DNA of 64,000 nt, from the NCBI RefSeq assembly GCF_014191375.1, contig NZ_JACHWN010000002.1:620001-684000 (forward strand). Reading direction: 5' to 3'. The notes beneath the pieces are model-generated. The model was not told where the DNA came from. It made no database searches and saw only the letters and a program-made list of their open reading frames with translations. This document shows positions 25,601 to 31,673 of this stretch, piece after piece. Position 1 is the stretch's first letter. Each line of letters starts with the position of its first letter. Origin of the DNA: Mesorhizobium sp. RMAD-H1 (GTDB lineage Bacteria > Pseudomonadota > Alphaproteobacteria > Rhizobiales > Rhizobiaceae). The position numbers and the translations under genes are program-made.

Positions 25601-25640
25601 GGGATGGCGGAACCACGGGGATCGGGCCCGACCAAATTTG

Positions 25641-25856
25641 TCAGGCCTTGTCCCGGGCCAGATGATAGGCAACGAGGGCATTGGCATGCCCGTGCCCCAT
25701 CTTGTGCTCTGATTTCAGCATGGAAACCATTTCCATGTGCTTCTTCCCCTTCAATCCGTCCAGCACCTCCAGCCAATGGCTGATCGGCCTGCCATAGGTC
25801 TTCTCGATGGAAGGAAAGTAGGAAGCGGGTCCCTTTACCTTGTTCTCTGCCGGCAT
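25641..25856 (-). CDS. DUF4287 domain protein
   Basis: A 71-residue protein made of a single DUF4287 domain: GPASYFPSIEKTYGRPISHW (residues 9-28), then a Lys-rich middle and the end MGHGHANALVAYHLARDKA. The family is widespread and uncharacterised, often with a partner DUF5655. It lies 120 bp downstream of chrA in the same direction and converges with putR. A second, decayed copy lies on the other side of the chromate genes (28321-28460). This suggests the chr segment was inserted by, or bordered by, a duplication. Confidence 0.85.
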   Translation of the reverse strand: MPAENKVKGPASYFPSIEKTYGRPISHWLEVLDGLKGKKHMEMVSMLKSEHKMGHGHANALVAYHLARDKA

Positions 25857-25975: not shown

Positions 25976-27391
25976 CTACCTCCCCCACGAGACCAGCAAT
26001 GTCCAGGCGATACCGAGAGCCGCCGAAAGCAGGAGCGTCGCGACCACGGACATCCTGAAACGGAAGATGGCGAGCGCCGCCAGGCCTGTCAGCACCAGCG
26101 ACGGCCAGACGACGGAACCGATGACCGGCACGTCCATTGACCAGGCGCCCCATGAGATCGCCCGCACCTCGGCGAAGAGCACGTGCAGGCCGAACCAGAT
26201 GGCGAGGTTCAGGATCACGCCCACGACCGCGGCCGTGATGGCCGACATTGCCCCCGCCAGGGCCGCATTGCCGCGCATCCGCTCGATGAACGGCGCGCCG
26301 AGGAAGATCCAGAGGAAGCTCGGCAGGAATGTCACCCACGTCGTCAGCATGGCGGCGAGCGTCGCCGCCATGAGCGGGTCGAGCGCCCCCGGATCGCGAT
26401 AGCCGGCGAGGAAGCCCACGAACTGCGTAACCATGATCAGCGGGCCCGGCGTCGTCTCGGCCATGCCGAGCCCGTCCAGCATCTCGCCCGGCTGCAGCCA
26501 GCCGAAGCGCTGCACCGCCTCCTGGGCGACATAGGCGAGGACGGCATAGGCGCCGCCGAAGGTGACGACGGCCATCTGGCTGAAGAAAACGCCGATCTTC
26601 GCGAAAACATTCGCCGGCCCGAGCGCCATGAGGATGGCGATGACCGGGAGCAGCCAGAGGGCGGACAGGACGGCCGAGATCTTCATGGACCAGGCGAGAT
26701 TCGCCCGTGCGTGAACCGGAACATCTTCGCCGAGCGCCGAATCCCGGTCCTCCAATATCGTCCCCGATCCGGCCTTGTGGCCGCCGCCTACCTTGAAAGC
26801 CGTAAGGCCGGCCCGGCCGCCGAGATAGCCGATCAGCCCGGCCGCGATGATGATCAACGGAAAGGGAATGTGGAGGAAGAAGATGGCGATGAACGCCGCG
26901 GCGGCGATGGCGACCATCACCCTGTTCTTCAGGGCGCGCCCGCCGATGCGGAACACCGCCTGCAGGACGACGGCCAGCACCGCGCATTTCAGGCCGAAGA
27001 ACAGGCCCTCGATGAAGGTGACATTGCCGAAAAGCACATAGATGTAGCTGAGCGCGAGGATCGAAAGGAAGCCCGGCAGGACGAACAGGACGCCGGCAAT
27101 CACGCCGCCCAGGGTCCTGTTGAGCAGCCAGCCTATATAGATGGCGAGCTGATGGGCCTCCGGCCCGGGCAGAAGCATGCAGTAGTTGAGCGCATGCAGG
27201 AAGCGGTGCTCCCCGATCCACCGCTTCTCGTCGACCAGGATGCGATGCATCACCGCGATCTGGCCCGCGGGGCCGCCGAAGCTGAGCGCGGCGACCCGCA
27301 CCCAGGTTCTCACGGCCTCCGGCAGGGGGACGATATTGCCGGCCCGCCCGGGACCGGCCTTCGGCGCGTCTTTGGCGAGATCGGCCATCAT
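25976..27391 (-). CDS. chrA: Chromate transporter, long-chain ChrA
   Basis: A 471-residue inner membrane chromate exporter of the CHR superfamily. Two homologous halves are seen, each with the chromate motif: FGGPAGQIAVMH (near residue 43) and FGGAYAVLAYVAQEAV (near residue 270), plus the PGPEAHQLAIYIGWL and TPGPLIMVTQFVGFLAG segments. About ten hydrophobic helices are present. It starts one base after the chrB stop, so the pair is an operon expelling chromate from the cytoplasm. An ATG three bases further in (27388) is an alternative start. Confidence 0.95.
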   Translation of the reverse strand: MMADLAKDAPKAGPGRAGNIVPLPEAVRTWVRVAALSFGGPAGQIAVMHRILVDEKRWIGEHRFLHALNYCMLLPGPEAHQLAIYIGWLLNRTLGGVIAGVLFVLPGFLSILALSYIYVLFGNVTFIEGLFFGLKCAVLAVVLQAVFRIGGRALKNRVMVAIAAAAFIAIFFLHIPFPLIIIAAGLIGYLGGRAGLTAFKVGGGHKAGSGTILEDRDSALGEDVPVHARANLAWSMKISAVLSALWLLPVIAILMALGPANVFAKIGVFFSQMAVVTFGGAYAVLAYVAQEAVQRFGWLQPGEMLDGLGMAETTPGPLIMVTQFVGFLAGYRDPGALDPLMAATLAAMLTTWVTFLPSFLWIFLGAPFIERMRGNAALAGAMSAITAAVVGVILNLAIWFGLHVLFAEVRAISWGAWSMDVPVIGSVVWPSLVLTGLAALAIFRFRMSVVATLLLSAALGIAWTLLVSWGR

Positions 27392-27392
27392 C

Positions 27393-28205
27393 CTATCCCT
27401 TCCGCGGGTTCGGCCAGTTGTGCGTCTCGCCCGTCGCGTCGCGGCACCACCGGTAGAAGGCGTCATAGAGCGTCAAGCCGGCCGCCAGTTGCTCGAGATC
27501 GTCGTTGAACATGCGCGAGAGCCCGAGCGAGGCGGCCAAAAGGCCGGGCACCTCGGGCGCAAGCTCGGGCCGCGCCGTATCCGCCCCGCGCACGATCGCG
27601 GCCAGATGCAGGAGCGGCTGGGATGTGAGGGCGAATTCCTCCAGCATGACGTCGAAGGTGCAGAGTTCGCCGCGATGGCTCCAGAACACGTCCTCGATGT
27701 CGAACGGCGTCGCAGTGAAGCGGTCCGCGACGGCCGGCACCTCCCCCGCGGGCACGAAGAGGAAGACGGCGAAGGGATCGATGAAGCGGCGGATGAGCCA
27801 GGGGCAGGCGATGCGGTCGATCTTCGGGCGGGCGCGCGTCACCCAGACCGTCCGCCCGCGCCCGTCGCGCGGCGGAAGCTTCCCGTCGGGCACCAGCATG
27901 CCCCCCGCCGACCGCCAGGCCTCGAAACCGCCTTCGAGCACCTCCGACGCCATTCCCTCATGACGCAGATAGGCCGCGACGCCGTGGCTGAGCTTCTGCC
28001 CTTTCTGGCAGATCAGGATCGAAGGCCCCGCCACCTCCGGCCGCCACGCCTCCACCGCGCGATAATCGCGCCTGATCGAGCCGGGAATGATCCGCGGATC
28101 ATCGGCAAAATCCTCATCGATGCGCACGTCGATCAGCAGGGGCGCATTCGGCGTCCCGATGATGCGGTTCAATTTGTCAGGGGTGATTTCAAGAAATGAC
28201 GGCAT
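27393..28205 (-). CDS. chrB: ChrB, chromate resistance regulator/protein with N-terminal rhodanese domain
   Basis: A 270-residue protein with two parts. Residues 1-105 are a rhodanese domain: LIDVRIDEDF, then the active-site loop CQKGQKLS with Cys present, and GGFEAWR. Residues about 118-265 are the ChrB C-terminal domain: VWVTRARPKIDRIACPWLIRRFIDP, and FDVMLEEFAL. ChrB in Ochrobactrum and Cupriavidus senses chromate and activates chrA. The rhodanese head replaces the usual N-terminal region in some homologues. It starts with a GGAGGGAC ribosome site and is followed by chrA with one base between. Confidence 0.88.
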   Translation of the reverse strand: MPSFLEITPDKLNRIIGTPNAPLLIDVRIDEDFADDPRIIPGSIRRDYRAVEAWRPEVAGPSILICQKGQKLSHGVAAYLRHEGMASEVLEGGFEAWRSAGGMLVPDGKLPPRDGRGRTVWVTRARPKIDRIACPWLIRRFIDPFAVFLFVPAGEVPAVADRFTATPFDIEDVFWSHRGELCTFDVMLEEFALTSQPLLHLAAIVRGADTARPELAPEVPGLLAASLGLSRMFNDDLEQLAAGLTLYDAFYRWCRDATGETHNWPNPRKG

Positions 28206-28320
28206 GACGCGTCCCTCCGTTTGGCTCGGGTTCAAAGGACGCGATTCTTCAGCCGTGGCCTCGTGGGGCGATCGCTACCCCATGGCAGGATTTTGCAAGA
28301 GTGGGGGCGGATGTCAATAT

Positions 28321-28460
28321 GCTAGGCTTTGTCCTTGGACAGATGTTAGACAATGAGGGCATTGGCACGCCTGCCCATTTTGTGCCCCACCTTCAAGGCA
28401 GAAACCATTTCCATGTGCTTCTTCCCCCTACCCTTTGCCGGCATATCCGCTCTCGCACCT
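28321..28460 (-). pseudogene. Decayed copy of the DUF4287 gene
   Basis: The sequence aligns base by base with the intact DUF4287 gene at 25641-25880. It includes the last 28 codons (GAGGGCATTGGCA and ACCATTTCCATGTGC blocks are identical), then lacks about 95 bases from the middle, and resumes in the start-codon region (CCCTTT, GCCGGCAT). Several small changes and a 3-base loss are also present. It lies in the same orientation, directly upstream of chrB. Confidence 0.78.
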
Positions 28461-28474
28461 CGAATTTCAAAAGG

Positions 28475-30586
28475 CTAATCACTCACGAGCAGCGCGCGCA
28501 AGCGTTCCAAGTTGTCTGCGAGCCAGGGATTGGCAGGTACTCCAGCATCAGCGATCAAGGTTTCGATTATCTTCTGCACGCTATCCGCATCAAAGAGTTC
28601 ATCAAGCAAGGAGCGCTCCGCACTTGTGCCTGGGGGTAAAAGAAGTGCAGCTAAGGTTGAGATTGCCTCCAAGGTGTCCAACTGCGCAGTGAGGGAGGAA
28701 TGCAACTCTTTGTCCCAATTTTCCGTGTTCAAGATAACATAAACGGCCTCCATGTTTGGCAGCCGCCGAAGAGCTGTACCATCTCGCACCGCTTGTATAT
28801 AGCGAGGCAACTCGCGAGCGAGCAGGTTCTCAGTCTCCTGCCGGGTTAGCACCTCACCTCCTCTTGGGGCGCTCGAATATTTCGTCAGTCCATGAGCGAA
28901 CAGATGCTTGCGTAATATCCATGGCACTAAGACGAGATCGCCTTTGGCAATGAGAGTCTCGATGGTGGCTCGAAGTCTATGCGCTTGGGAACGATCACGT
29001 TGCCCAATCCGAAAAAGAGTGGTCGCCGCATCCTCTGCGAGGGCTCTTGTTGCCTCAGGCGCGGACAGCCAATCCGAATGCCTAAAAAAAGTTCGCCCAA
29101 GCGCAACCCAAAAAATTTGATCACCCGATTCTGGGAGCAAATGTACAAGATCGTCCAAGCGGTCGATGACTGAGGCCAGCTTACCTTCGTTCATCAACTG
29201 TCGTAGTACAATCTCAAGTTCGGTCACATTAGAGTTGTTCCATAAGCTCTCCAAATCCGAACGACGCACTGTGCCGGGTGGATCGCCTAGATAAAGCATA
29301 CGCACGAGATTTCGGCGTCTTGACAGCCGTTCTCCATCATCGGAGTCTACGGCCTGTCCTCTCAAGCGCGGAAACAACAATTCCAGCGTTTTCGTATGTA
29401 TTATAGCGGCTTCGCCCAATAATTCAGCAATACCAGGCTCAGCCTCCTTATTCAGGTTGCGTATTACCCGCTCGGACATGACCCGCTCGCTAGGGTCGCT
29501 GACGAGATTGTCAAAATGGGCAGCGATCTGATCTCTCAATGTGGGAGACTTCGTTAGAACCCAGCAGTAAGCAAGTACATCGTAAGGGCAAATCTCACCT
29601 CTTACTGTTCGCCCGAGTACAGAGAAGGCACCGATCAGACGCTTGATCTCGCGCGGGGTCTGTATCACGTCGACAAAATGGTTAAACAACAACTGTTGGC
29701 TATCTTTGCCCGGTGTTTCCAACGTCACATTGTTGTCTGCAAGCGTAGCCCTCAGCAAGCGCCTTATATCCTCTGCAAACAAGGGGCGCAGAGGGATGGG
29801 ATGTTGAATTATCTTCTCAAGATATCGCTCACCAGATTCACGGCGTTCGTTTCCTTCACCTCGTCCCAGCGCTTGGACGACGCGGTCGGGATCGTAGGCA
29901 ACGAGGTAGGATACGCCCTTGATATCTCCAACTGCCTTCACGAGTTGTGCCACCGCGCGAACTTCATTGTCCTCGACCCGATCTAGTTCATCGATCAGCA
30001 CCACAACAGAACAATTTGTTTGGGAAATCTTTTCTTCCAGGGCAAACCGCTCCTCATCCGGCGTCCGTGTTTTGGGTTTTAATATGGCTCCCCGCATGTG
30101 CTCTCCCCAAATCTTCCAACCGGCTGTAGCTGCGCCCGATCCGCCATGTAGGTCTATCGCCGTGGCCACTCCGTGCCCTGCAACATTGATCGCACCCCAA
30201 TAGCGATCAATTGCCTTGACGAGCGCTCGGGCCTCTTCCACGCGGCTCCGCCCCATCGCACTGCGCAGCGAATTAAAGAAGCCCGTGAGAAGTTCATCAC
30301 GCCCGCTAAAGAGCCAAGGATTAAACGTCGCAACGATTACATGGTCCATCGAATCGAGTTTCTGCGCCAAAAGATTCAGCACACTCGATTTACCCAGACC
30401 CCAGCGGCCGGTTAACCCAACCACATAGCCAGTTGAATGTCGCCCGACGATGCACCCTTTTTCATTCAGCTCATCTAGGACCAATGCACGAATGAGACTA
30501 TTGATAAATGGACCTCGGTCGAGCTGATCAGCTGCTTCGGCTTCGATTGGGCGGTCTTGGTGAGAGATGTGACGAAATTCAGTCAT
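28475..30586 (-). CDS. KAP-family P-loop NTPase
   Basis: A 703-residue KAP NTPase (STAND-related P-loop class). Walker A GRWGLGKSS is at residues 60-68. The KAP-typical FNPWLFSGRDEL is at 88-99 and Walker B VVVLIDELDR at 194-203. A KAP arginine-rich segment, TPREIKRLI, follows. The remaining half is alpha-helical without a known domain. No clear pair of transmembrane helices interrupts the NTPase domain, unlike classical KAPs. It stands alone, its base composition is visibly more AT-rich than its neighbours and it lies in an accessory segment. KAP NTPases appear in anti-phage and plasmid contexts, but the role here is unknown. A GTG at 30613 is an alternative start. Confidence 0.88.
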   Translation of the reverse strand: MTEFRHISHQDRPIEAEAADQLDRGPFINSLIRALVLDELNEKGCIVGRHSTGYVVGLTGRWGLGKSSVLNLLAQKLDSMDHVIVATFNPWLFSGRDELLTGFFNSLRSAMGRSRVEEARALVKAIDRYWGAINVAGHGVATAIDLHGGSGAATAGWKIWGEHMRGAILKPKTRTPDEERFALEEKISQTNCSVVVLIDELDRVEDNEVRAVAQLVKAVGDIKGVSYLVAYDPDRVVQALGRGEGNERRESGERYLEKIIQHPIPLRPLFAEDIRRLLRATLADNNVTLETPGKDSQQLLFNHFVDVIQTPREIKRLIGAFSVLGRTVRGEICPYDVLAYCWVLTKSPTLRDQIAAHFDNLVSDPSERVMSERVIRNLNKEAEPGIAELLGEAAIIHTKTLELLFPRLRGQAVDSDDGERLSRRRNLVRMLYLGDPPGTVRRSDLESLWNNSNVTELEIVLRQLMNEGKLASVIDRLDDLVHLLPESGDQIFWVALGRTFFRHSDWLSAPEATRALAEDAATTLFRIGQRDRSQAHRLRATIETLIAKGDLVLVPWILRKHLFAHGLTKYSSAPRGGEVLTRQETENLLARELPRYIQAVRDGTALRRLPNMEAVYVILNTENWDKELHSSLTAQLDTLEAISTLAALLLPPGTSAERSLLDELFDADSVQKIIETLIADAGVPANPWLADNLERLRALLVSD

Positions 30587-30710
30587 TTGATGACGATTTC
30601 CCAACTTAAGCACGAGTCAATCCGGTTCCAACGCTATCGGTAGAACCTCCCCGATTCCACGACTATTCATTTGTTATCTCTTTGAAGTGAGATGGCGCCT
30701 ATATTTTCCC

Positions 30711-31673
30711 TCACCCCACATCCCCCCAATCCAGCCTTCTCGCCTTCCTATACCCCTCCCCGTCCCGCTTGGTGACCAGCCTCTCCTCCACCTGCCCCCC
30801 CGGCAAACACAGCTTCAGTTCGATCCGGCCGGAGCTCGTCTTCGGCGGGGCGAGCACGCGGGCCTGTGCCGCCATACCTGGAAACCGCGTCGCCGCGAGG
30901 TAGATATATTTCTCGTCCTCCCACGGCACTTCCGCGCCCTTCGCCAGCCTGTGCAGGCGCGAGCGGGCGACGCGGCGGGAGAAGTGGCACCAGTCGGGCT
31001 CCTTGAGCGGGCATGGCGCCGCGTGCGGGCAAGGGGCGGCGAGATGCGCGCCCTGGTCGACAAGGCGTTTGCGCACCGCCATCATGCGCCGCCAGCCGGC
31101 CGGCGTGCCGGGCTCGACCACCAGCAGCATGCCTTTCGCCGCCTGCCACAGCCTTTCGACAAGCTTCAGCCCCTCCTCCGGCGATAGCTCGTCCAGCACA
31201 TAGGCGAGCGTCACCAGATCGAATTGTTCCGTTTCCGGCAGATTCCGCGCCACATCGGCCGCCCGCCATTCTGTCTCCTGGAGCCGCGAACGGCGCGAGA
31301 GCTCCTGCCCGAGCGCGCGGATCGCGGGGCTCGCCTCCAGCATCACCGCCTCTTCGAGCGAGGGCCAGCAATCGCTCGCCGCCCAGAGCGCCGTGCCCGG
31401 CCCAGCGCCGACATCGAGCAGGCTTTTCGGCGTAAAATCCGGGGTCAGTTCCGCGGCGCTCTCCATGCTCGCGCGCACCGCCGCATAGGTCGCCGGCAGG
31501 CGCGTGGCGAGATAGGCGCGCGCGGCGAGATCGCTCGAGAGATGCAAGGTCCCGTCGCGCGTCTCCGCCCGGTAGCGGCGCGAGAGAAGGTCGGCGGCGC
31601 GCTTCAATTCGGCCAGCGGAATGCCTTCCAGCGCCGCCTCGACGGCAAGCCTCAATGGCGTGGGGAGTTCCAT
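30711..31673 (-). CDS. Rsm22-like small ribosomal subunit methyltransferase
   Basis: A 320-residue SAM-dependent methyltransferase related to mitochondrial Rsm22/METTL17. The SAM site is LLDVGAGPGTALWA (about residues 85-98). A cysteine cluster, AAPCPHAAPCPL...DWCHF at about residues 217-236, matches the Fe-S binding region of the family. Rsm22 proteins assist assembly of the small ribosomal subunit. It resumes the normal high-GC composition after the KAP gene. The neighbouring gene on the other side of a 15-bp palindrome is DUF2333. Confidence 0.87.
   Translation of the reverse strand: MELPTPLRLAVEAALEGIPLAELKRAADLLSRRYRAETRDGTLHLSSDLAARAYLATRLPATYAAVRASMESAAELTPDFTPKSLLDVGAGPGTALWAASDCWPSLEEAVMLEASPAIRALGQELSRRSRLQETEWRAADVARNLPETEQFDLVTLAYVLDELSPEEGLKLVERLWQAAKGMLLVVEPGTPAGWRRMMAVRKRLVDQGAHLAAPCPHAAPCPLKEPDWCHFSRRVARSRLHRLAKGAEVPWEDEKYIYLAATRFPGMAAQARVLAPPKTSSGRIELKLCLPGGQVEERLVTKRDGEGYRKARRLDWGDVG

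What the first reader, a model, noticed from the sequence alone, without database searches (positions are those of the whole stretch)
28475..30613. Solitary, compositionally foreign KAP NTPase
A 703-residue KAP P-loop NTPase with clear Walker A and B stands alone in an accessory segment; its base usage is visibly AT-richer than flanking genes and it lacks the obvious membrane insert of classical KAPs. KAP and STAND NTPases are recurrent in anti-phage defence, so this is the best candidate in the window for an undescribed single-gene defence factor. The C-terminal 350 residues match no domain I know.
Basis: partly seen in the sequence, partly recalled or inferred. Interest (0 to 1): 0.6.

Follow-up and report, generated by a model that had tools for sequence, protein, structure and literature searches.

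The report
Horizontally acquired PifA-like KAP NTPase gene
This bacterium carries one extra gene, absent from its close relatives, for an ATP-binding protein related to a known phage-blocking protein of the F plasmid; relatives of it sit in prophages, beside known defence genes and inside CRISPR operons, so it is probably an anti-phage gene, though this was not tested.

Summary
28475-30613(-) encodes an intact 703-aa (ATG) or 712-aa (GTG) KAP NTPase with Walker A and B motifs. It is the only gene on a 2.39-kb segment (28321-30712, 52% GC) that all five available genus mates lack; two show a clean empty site. Its codon usage is more foreign than that of 41 scored window genes. It is not an orphan: with nine full-length homologues (47-60% identity) it forms a clade across Alphaproteobacteria and Pseudomonas. 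Four viral contigs hold further close members, and a wider clade lies at about 23-34%. The C-terminal half has no Pfam or clear PDB match but is conserved, all-helical, and weakly similar to that of F-plasmid PifA, a KAP-type phage-exclusion protein. Homologues lie next to a prophage integrase, beside Septu genes, near a ThsB-type gene, and in two genomes inside a type I-C cas operon between cas7 and cas4. Best explanation: a mobile single-gene PifA-like exclusion/abortive-infection NTPase (about 0.6; mechanism inferred). It is a new variant of a known kind, not a PifA (separate clade, no pifC). No phage test exists, the neighbour evidence is no enrichment test, and several homologues have ordinary-looking neighbours.

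The parts
28475..30613 (-). KAP NTPase gene (712 aa from GTG 30613; 703 aa from ATG 30586), intact
29606..30511 (-). KAP P-loop NTPase domain (about residues 26-327 of the 703-aa form)
   Evidence: Pfam PF07693 E 8.3e-54; model resembles RdrA and Orc/Cdc6 AAA+ folds
30383..30418 (-). Walker A, residues 57-68 GLTGRWGLGKSS
29978..30007 (-). Walker B, residues 194-203 VVVLIDELDR
30074..30172 (-). residues 139-171, low-confidence part of the segment where classical KAP proteins carry transmembrane helices (recalled); not hydrophobic enough to span a membrane here
28478..29554 (-). C-terminal all-helical domain, residues 345-703
   Evidence: AlphaFold2 mean pLDDT 90.8, pTM 0.86; weak similarity to PifA C-terminus
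28321..30712 (.). 2392-bp accessory segment holding only the KAP gene (plus a gene remnant); two genus mates (L087, L091) have about 50 and 55 bp here
   Evidence: no terminal inverted repeat or target duplication seen
28318..28427 (-). remnant of a small DUF4287-type gene just 3' of the KAP gene, about 79% identical to sequence at 25635-25749
   Evidence: DUF4287 identity inferred from the homologous gene in L089
30711..31673 (-). flank: Rsm22-like methyltransferase gene (found in all 6 genus genomes)
27393..28235 (-). flank: rhodanese + ChrB_C fusion
25976..27466 (-). flank: chromate transporter

Best explanation
A mobile, stand-alone KAP-type NTPase that protects its host, or the element that carried it, against phages, working broadly like F-plasmid PifA. 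Proposed working: the N-terminal P-loop domain binds ATP and may form a ring (RdrA-like fold); the C-terminal helical domain senses a phage component or process; on activation the NTPase changes state and stops the infection, by damaging the membrane or blocking a phage step, at a cost to the cell (exclusion or abortive infection). Shown here: the NTPase motifs, the acquisition, the clade and its contexts. Inferred: sensing by the C-terminal half, oligomerisation, the trigger and the killing step.
For: KAP domain E 8.3e-54. PADLOC PifA model 3.7e-54, best stretch at model positions 6-348 of 720. BLASTP to F PifA 25% over 320 columns, 1e-17. Profile comparison with five PifA proteins spans 645 columns, E 1.2e-40, a figure that the N-terminal halves alone also reach; C-terminal halves alone E 9e-5, probability 60%, 140 columns; the clade's C-terminal HMM finds F PifA at 1.9e-4. 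PifA is described as an abortive-infection system against T7, with phage Gp1.2 and Gp10 involved (passages of PMC8594841, and PMC10286901). Acquisition: five of five genus mates lack it at the site. Close homologues in 4 of 19 viral-contig loci; in L239 the gene lies between tail, endolysin and DNA-methyltransferase genes and the integrase; L241 has portal and terminase genes, L238 capsid genes. Of nine close homologue loci in genome contigs, one lies beside PtuA 2.8e-281 and PtuB 3.4e-99 (L101), one near a TIR gene (L100) to which I attribute the ThsB match of 1.8e-124 (one search names no member), one near an integrase and D5-type primase (L095). Two wider-clade members lie inside type I-C cas operons. 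Full model: the best 17 Foldseek hits are all RdrA chains of the RADAR defence system.
Against: No functional data. In the window the neighbours are Rsm22 and chromate genes, not defence genes. No enrichment against random loci was made; the control loci also gave PADLOC matches, and outside L101 and L100 most matches near close homologues are to generic domains. RdrA similarity may only reflect a shared AAA+ fold: Orc/Cdc6 follow closely (Z 14.4 against 16.9). No match in 50,697 phage records at E 1e-5; of 764 plasmid records with a match only one covers 80% of the query. The C-terminal half has no PDB match at Foldseek E 0.001 or better.
Confidence: 0.6

Rival explanations
1. Passenger: the gene served a mobile element (for example prophage superinfection exclusion) and is now a neutral leftover cargo in this chromosome, with no current role.
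For: It is alone on a segment with a degraded DUF4287-type remnant and no mobility gene; its codon usage is poorly adapted to the genome (CAI 0.386); no full-length copy in the five genus mates.
Against: The frame is intact over 703 codons. The window protein keeps 42 of 42 columns invariant in the 24 other rows of the wide alignment, and 156 of 160 invariant in its nine closest homologues; those nine are also uninterrupted.
Confidence: 0.17
2. A cellular or element-maintenance NTPase (membrane, DNA or stress signalling, element stability) whose presence beside defence genes only reflects shared islands.
For: KAP matches are widespread (10 of 14 control genomes, 8 over the cut-off). Homologues also lie beside TniB/TniQ-type transposition genes (L094; L120), and some neighbours look ordinary. 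PMC8594841 (passages) itself raises the possibility that PifA's main role is not immunity.
Against: Patchy distribution (1 of 199 family genomes full-length), the place next to a prophage integrase and tight cas-operon membership fit a conflict role better.
Confidence: 0.18
3. A subunit that needs a partner encoded elsewhere, as QatA needs QatBCD, rather than a single-gene system.
For: Weak QatA similarity (PADLOC 1.5e-10; NCBIfam 43 bits). In two genomes the gene is built into a cas operon.
Against: NCBIfam QatA cut-off is 600 bits. Among 179 neighbour ORFs of nine close homologues, all but one of the 7 recurring pairs are shared only between Pseudomonas loci; the seventh (L096-L103) is a 140-residue match; no gene recurs across the clade. 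The prophage copies have no common partner by eye.
Confidence: 0.05

Closest known systems
PifA of plasmid F (T7 exclusion; PADLOC PifA, PDLC02361)
   Same: KAP P-loop domain at the N-terminus (25% over 320 columns), similar length, no clear transmembrane insert in either, weakly similar C-terminal half; PifA lies on a plasmid, relatives of this protein on prophages and plasmids.
   Different: Separate, well-supported clades; PADLOC PifA model matched best at positions 6-348 of 720; no pifC-type repressor gene beside it, whereas F has pifC directly upstream.
Tmn (KAP NTPase with two transmembrane domains; anti-phage; passages of PMC11846954)
   Same: KAP family, defence role reported for Tmn.
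   Different: Tmn is described with two unusual transmembrane domains; none was found here between the Walker motifs or after them. Tmn's sequence was not compared.
QatA of QatABCD
   Same: Related P-loop region (PADLOC 1.5e-10).
   Different: 43 bits against a cut-off of 600; the flanking genes scanned belong to other families.
RdrA of RADAR
   Same: Predicted fold of residues 6-424 (VIA Z 16.9, 342 residues, rmsd 5.1; best Foldseek E 5.4e-7).
   Different: TM-score only about 0.3; no RdrA chain among the sequence matches in the PDB profile search; no RdrB-type gene among the flanking genes scanned.

Membership tests
KAP P-loop NTPases (Pfam PF07693) | match to the KAP_NTPase model above its cut-off | tested here: met
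   183 bits against cut-off 20; 186 bits in the whole-genome search
KAP P-loop NTPases (Pfam PF07693) | Walker A and Walker B motifs | tested here: met
KAP P-loop NTPases (Pfam PF07693) | transmembrane helices inserted between Walker A and B (typical of classical members by recall; not required by the Pfam model, and unclear in PifA) | tested here: not met
   maximum 19-residue Kyte-Doolittle mean 0.80 here, 2.02 in L112; 1.27 in F PifA
PifA | N-terminal KAP domain of PifA type | tested here: met
   PADLOC PDLC02361 3.7e-54; BLASTP 1e-17
PifA | full-length match to the PifA model and place in the PifA clade | tested here: not met
   best stretch at model positions 6-348 of 720; PifA rows form their own 100/100 clade, the window protein falls in another 28-row clade 100/99 (long branches flagged)
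PifA | C-terminal domain homologous to that of PifA | tested here: inconclusive
   hhalign E 9e-5 but probability 60% over 140 columns; HMM 1.9e-4
PifA | operon with a pifC-type repressor | tested here: not met
   the upstream gene is Rsm22-like; in F, pifC lies directly upstream of pifA
PifA | exclusion of T7-like phages | not testable with these tools
   needs plating assays
QatA | NCBIfam NF041923 above cut-off | tested here: not met
   43.3 bits against 600
Tmn | two transmembrane domains | tested here: not met
   (segment between Walker motifs 0.80, after Walker B 1.34); definition from passages of PMC11846954
RADAR RdrA | RdrA fold | tested here: inconclusive
   Z 16.9 over residues 6-424 but TM about 0.3, with Orc/Cdc6 folds at Z 14
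RADAR RdrA | RdrB deaminase gene alongside | tested here: not met
   scanned flanking genes are Rsm22, DUF2333, ChrB-type, chromate transporter, Lrp-type, PutA-type

The most novel reading that the evidence does not exclude
A distinct clade of KAP NTPases is a transferable sensor-effector used in three ways: alone on chromosomes, as an accessory gene in prophages, and as a translationally coupled extra subunit of type I-C CRISPR-Cas, where it would act when Cascade engages a target or is defeated (a built-in abortive-infection backup).
Probability: 0.2. Interest if true: 0.75.

Novelty: new variant of a known kind. Interest (0 to 1): 0.52.

Why it matters
PifA is a classical phage-exclusion protein (recalled), yet PMC8594841 (passages) reports a remarkably poor target range for it and suggests that it may have another main function. 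A sister clade found in prophages, beside defence genes and inside cas operons gives natural variants with which to test what KAP NTPases sense and how they act. The cas-operon members would tie a PifA-like NTPase directly to adaptive immunity.

Tried and rejected
A single-protein scan of genome contigs found nothing; the four-sequence alignment A1 did. I looked for a transposon: no terminal inverted repeat or target duplication seen at 28321/30712. The one notable repeat, 28318-28427 against 25635-25749, is read as a DUF4287-type gene remnant, not a mobile-element end. No match in phage records at E 1e-5, though IMG/VR viral contigs hold close homologues. PDB sequence searches gave no KAP or RdrA relative: weak matches to other P-loop proteins at the Walker A region (best E 0.0029), and to unrelated proteins (best E 0.00099, a radial spoke protein over residues about 420-520; 0.035). 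The C-terminal half alone: no Foldseek match at E 0.001 or better; best VIA Z 8.1 to a karyopherin, which for helical proteins may be only a common arrangement. I considered and dropped 'it is a PifA', 'it is a QatA' and 'it is a RdrA' (Membership tests).

Neighbour scoring. Close homologues: 149 ORFs from nine loci matched 198 PADLOC models at 1e-5, of which the tool shows 25. PtuA and PtuB of one locus, L101, alone match 117 and 36 models. After leaving out L101 and 32 or so doubtful ORFs, 103 ORFs matched 26 models at 1e-8: ThsB 1.8e-124 is the specific one; the others are mostly generic (mad3, PycC, GajB-type helicase, AriA and the like). Control: 62 ORFs of the five genus-mate loci matched 31 models at 1e-5, 25 of them from one PD-Lambda-5_A-like protein. 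This is not a proof of enrichment. The wider clade (15 loci, 170 ORFs) was judged by eye plus 19 different chosen proteins.

Readings of single ORFs by eye are marked as such. L240:792-1607 looks TIR-like by eye but PHROGs and phmmer against the PDB found nothing. The TnsA and TnsB readings in L120 are by eye; Pfam and NCBIfam gave no match for the TnsB-like ORF.

Paper searches for KAP with CRISPR, KAP with anti-phage or defence, KAP family, PifA and RdrA with KAP listed no report of this clade or of KAP genes in type I-C operons in what I saw: listings and abstract starts, and passages of PMC11846954, PMC8594841, PMC6360697, PMC10286901 and PMC13273231. A term search inside PMC11090510 and PMC9994260 found no passage. 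The 2004 KAP family paper was not held. Most subscription papers are not in the library.
Full report
THE OBJECT. Window 28475-30613 on the minus strand is an intact gene of 703 codons from the ATG at 30586 (712 from an upstream GTG) with a TAG stop. Pfam gives KAP_NTPase at 8.3e-54, an overlapping AAA_22 match, and no family for the C-terminal half. Walker A (GLTGRWGLGKSS, 57-68) and Walker B (VVVLIDELDR, 194-203) are present; the protein keeps 42 of 42 columns that are invariant in the 24 other rows of the wide alignment, and 156 of 160 invariant in its nine closest homologues. Between the motifs lies a segment of 125 residues where classical KAP proteins carry transmembrane helices (recalled). 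Here its most hydrophobic 19 residues average only 0.80. In 24 of 26 relatives that the script could measure, the values run from 0.66 to 2.02 (in L114 the second motif was mis-assigned, so its value is doubtful). F PifA has 1.27. The lack of a clear membrane insert is therefore PifA-like rather than odd. AlphaFold2 on the 25-sequence alignment gave mean pLDDT 85.4 and pTM 0.75, with residues 139-171 of that segment below 50. Residues 345-703 folded alone gave pLDDT 90.8 and pTM 0.86, all helices.

ACQUISITION. The gene's GC is 52.6% and its CAI 0.386, lower than all 41 other window genes scored (mean 0.716, sd 0.078, minimum 0.492). Among 15 homologue loci checked, the KAP gene is AT-richer than its flanks in 10, equal in 2 and richer in GC in 3, so low GC may partly be a property of the family. 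In the genus, 6 of 6 genomes keep the Rsm22 flank. In L087 (88% DNA identity over the left flank) and L091 the window's 28321-30712 is replaced by about 50 and 55 bp. The other three mates (L088, L089, L090) also lack the gene between the flanks, but there the chromate genes are missing too. A whole-genome search found a full-length copy in the own genome only; G937 has a distant KAP gene (27%, residues 50-344) on another contig, and the other four have no match. In the family, 23 of 199 genomes have some match but only the own genome has a full-length one, the next best being 4.4e-28 over residues 52-340. No inverted repeats or target duplication were seen at the ends. The 3' end of the segment carries a remnant of a DUF4287-type gene, a paralogue of one near the Lrp-type gene, so homologous recombination is a plausible route (inference).

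THE SITE. The interval between the Lrp-type gene and Rsm22 is variable. The window has chromate genes plus KAP; G935 and G936 have the chromate genes alone; G937 a FUSC-type gene; G142 FUSC and DUF5677 genes; G050 a protein matching PD-Lambda-5_A at 7.9e-69 over nearly its whole length, plus a DUF4287 protein. So 2 of 6 genomes, the window included, carry a strong match to a defence model in this slot (PifA model; PD-Lambda-5_A).

KIN. The alignment-based scan of genome contigs confirmed 390 of 570 candidate stretches and kept the best 80, 79 distinct loci. A tree of 37 rows puts the window protein in a 10-row clade (100/100) with nine others: Rhizobium altiplani, Afifella marina, a Novosphingobium MAG, an Asaia MAG, four Pseudomonas and a Phenylobacterium MAG (47-60% identity). 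This host mixture speaks for transfer (inference). A wider 28-row clade (100/99) excludes the PifA clade (100/100); flags six long branches and warns that the PifA rows meet another long branch. The C-terminal half is conserved across the wider clade: a C-terminal HMM finds 49 of the 189 ORFs that the full model finds. Those above 100 bits come from 26 distinct loci, 23 of which built the model. F PifA scores 1.9e-4. Profile comparison of the C-terminal halves with PifA gives E 9e-5, probability 60%, over 140 columns, while mismatched halves give 0.057 and 0.67. I read this as a distant common origin along the whole length, not proven for the C-terminal half. In plasmids 764 records match, mostly over the N-terminal half; one covers at least 80% of the query.

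CONTEXTS OF KIN. (a) Phages: of 19 viral-contig loci with a relative, 4 are full-length at about 48-52%. In L239 the gene lies between a tail protein (6.9e-127), an endolysin (7.3e-74) and a DNA methyltransferase (8.3e-94) on one side and an integrase (2.8e-77) on the other. L240 has the same integrase-side arrangement by eye. L241 holds portal (2.8e-132) and terminase (7e-92) genes, L238 a major head protein (1e-60) and head protease (1.8e-114). The L239 and L240 proteins are 78% and 77% identical to the one in Pseudomonas sp. LS-2. (b) Defence genes: L101 (P. fluorescens H24) has Septu PtuB (3.4e-99) and PtuA (2.8e-281) just downstream on the other strand; L100 (P. quercus) has a TIR-domain gene about 0.6 kb downstream, to which I attribute the ThsB match of 1.8e-124 (one search does not name the member). 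(c) Mobile genes: L095 integrase, next to a tRNA-Glu gene, and D5-type primase within 5 kb; L104 integrases; L094 Mu-type transposase, TniB, TniQ and integrases; L120 TniB and TniQ followed by two KAP genes in tandem. (d) CRISPR: L114 (Phaeospirillum MAG) and L118 (contig binned as Stygiobacter) have a type I-C order cas3-cas5-cas8c-cas7-KAP-cas4-cas1-cas2-array. NCBIfam confirms Cas3, Cas5c, Cas8c/Csd1, Cas7/Csd2 and Cas1c in L114 and Cas5c, Cas7, Cas4 and Cas1c in L118; the rest are read by eye and by L114-L118 similarity, and the arrays by 36 and 25 copies of a repeat. Junctions are tight: in L114 the KAP ATG follows the cas7 stop by 2 bases and the KAP stop overlaps the cas4 start; in L118 the KAP GTG overlaps the cas7 stop. 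The two KAP proteins are 48% identical while the cas proteins range from 34% to 76%, so the arrangement seems to have been kept since their divergence (inference). A search of 289 class genomes with the L118 protein found 20 with a match, but none close (best 34%). (e) Against: L109, L112, L115, L117 and L119 look ordinary by eye, and L105, L106, L111, L116 were not classed. No neighbour recurs across the close clade; 6 of 7 recurring pairs are between Pseudomonas loci.

HOW IT PROBABLY WORKS. Established for the family: KAP proteins are P-loop NTPases. PifA is described as aborting T7 infection, with phage Gp1.2 and Gp10 deciding sensitivity and membrane effects reported (passages of PMC8594841 and PMC10286901). 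Inferred: the C-terminal helical domain is the sensor; ATP binding drives assembly. The whole-model search returns RdrA chains as its 17 best hits (E 5.4e-7 to 1.5e-5), with VIA Z 16.9 over 342 residues of 6-424, but TM is about 0.3 and Orc/Cdc6 folds follow at Z 14, so the ring is a suggestion only. The flexible segment between the Walker motifs is the natural candidate for a membrane-acting or switching part (inference). I put defence at about 0.6, and a PifA-like membrane end-effect at about 0.3.

NOVELTY. [quoted passage not shown] The nearest label is 'PifA-like KAP NTPase, new clade'. My paper searches showed no description of this clade or of a KAP gene inside a type I-C operon, but the library lacks most subscription papers. 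I rate it a new variant of a known kind.

Noticed in passing
L114:1161-10855 and L118:4653-13998: KAP homologue built into a type I-C cas operon between cas7 and cas4 with overlapping or near-overlapping start and stop codons, in two genomes; the two KAP proteins are 48% identical.
   Followed up: partly
L120:1-14445 (G1284:C13): Type I-C-like cas7 and a 3' part of cas8, then TnsA/TnsB-like ORFs (by eye), TniB and TniQ (Pfam), then two tandem KAP genes: possibly a CRISPR-associated Tn7-like element with KAP cargo, or a transposon inserted in a cas operon.
   Followed up: partly
L089:6923-8257 (genus mate G050): PD-Lambda-5_A-like protein (7.9e-69; no Pfam match) in the same Lrp-Rsm22 interval that holds the KAP gene in the window; the interval seems to be a variable slot.
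   Followed up: partly
window 28318-28427 and 25635-25749: Remnant of a DUF4287-type gene beside the KAP gene, about 79% identical to a second copy near the Lrp-type gene.
   Followed up: partly
L101:3815-8203: 1463-aa ORF with a P-loop-like motif (by eye) upstream of the KAP gene, with Septu on the other side; no Pfam or PADLOC match: a candidate defence protein.
   Followed up: no
L240:792-1607: TIR-like protein (by eye) in a viral contig carrying the KAP gene; no PHROGs or PDB sequence match.
   Followed up: partly
window 27393-28235: Rhodanese domain fused to a ChrB C-terminal domain beside a chromate transporter; this stretch aligns in two of five genus mates.
   Followed up: no
G937:C17:7116-7979: A genus mate carries a different, distant KAP gene (27%, 427-aa open frame) on another contig.
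   Followed up: no
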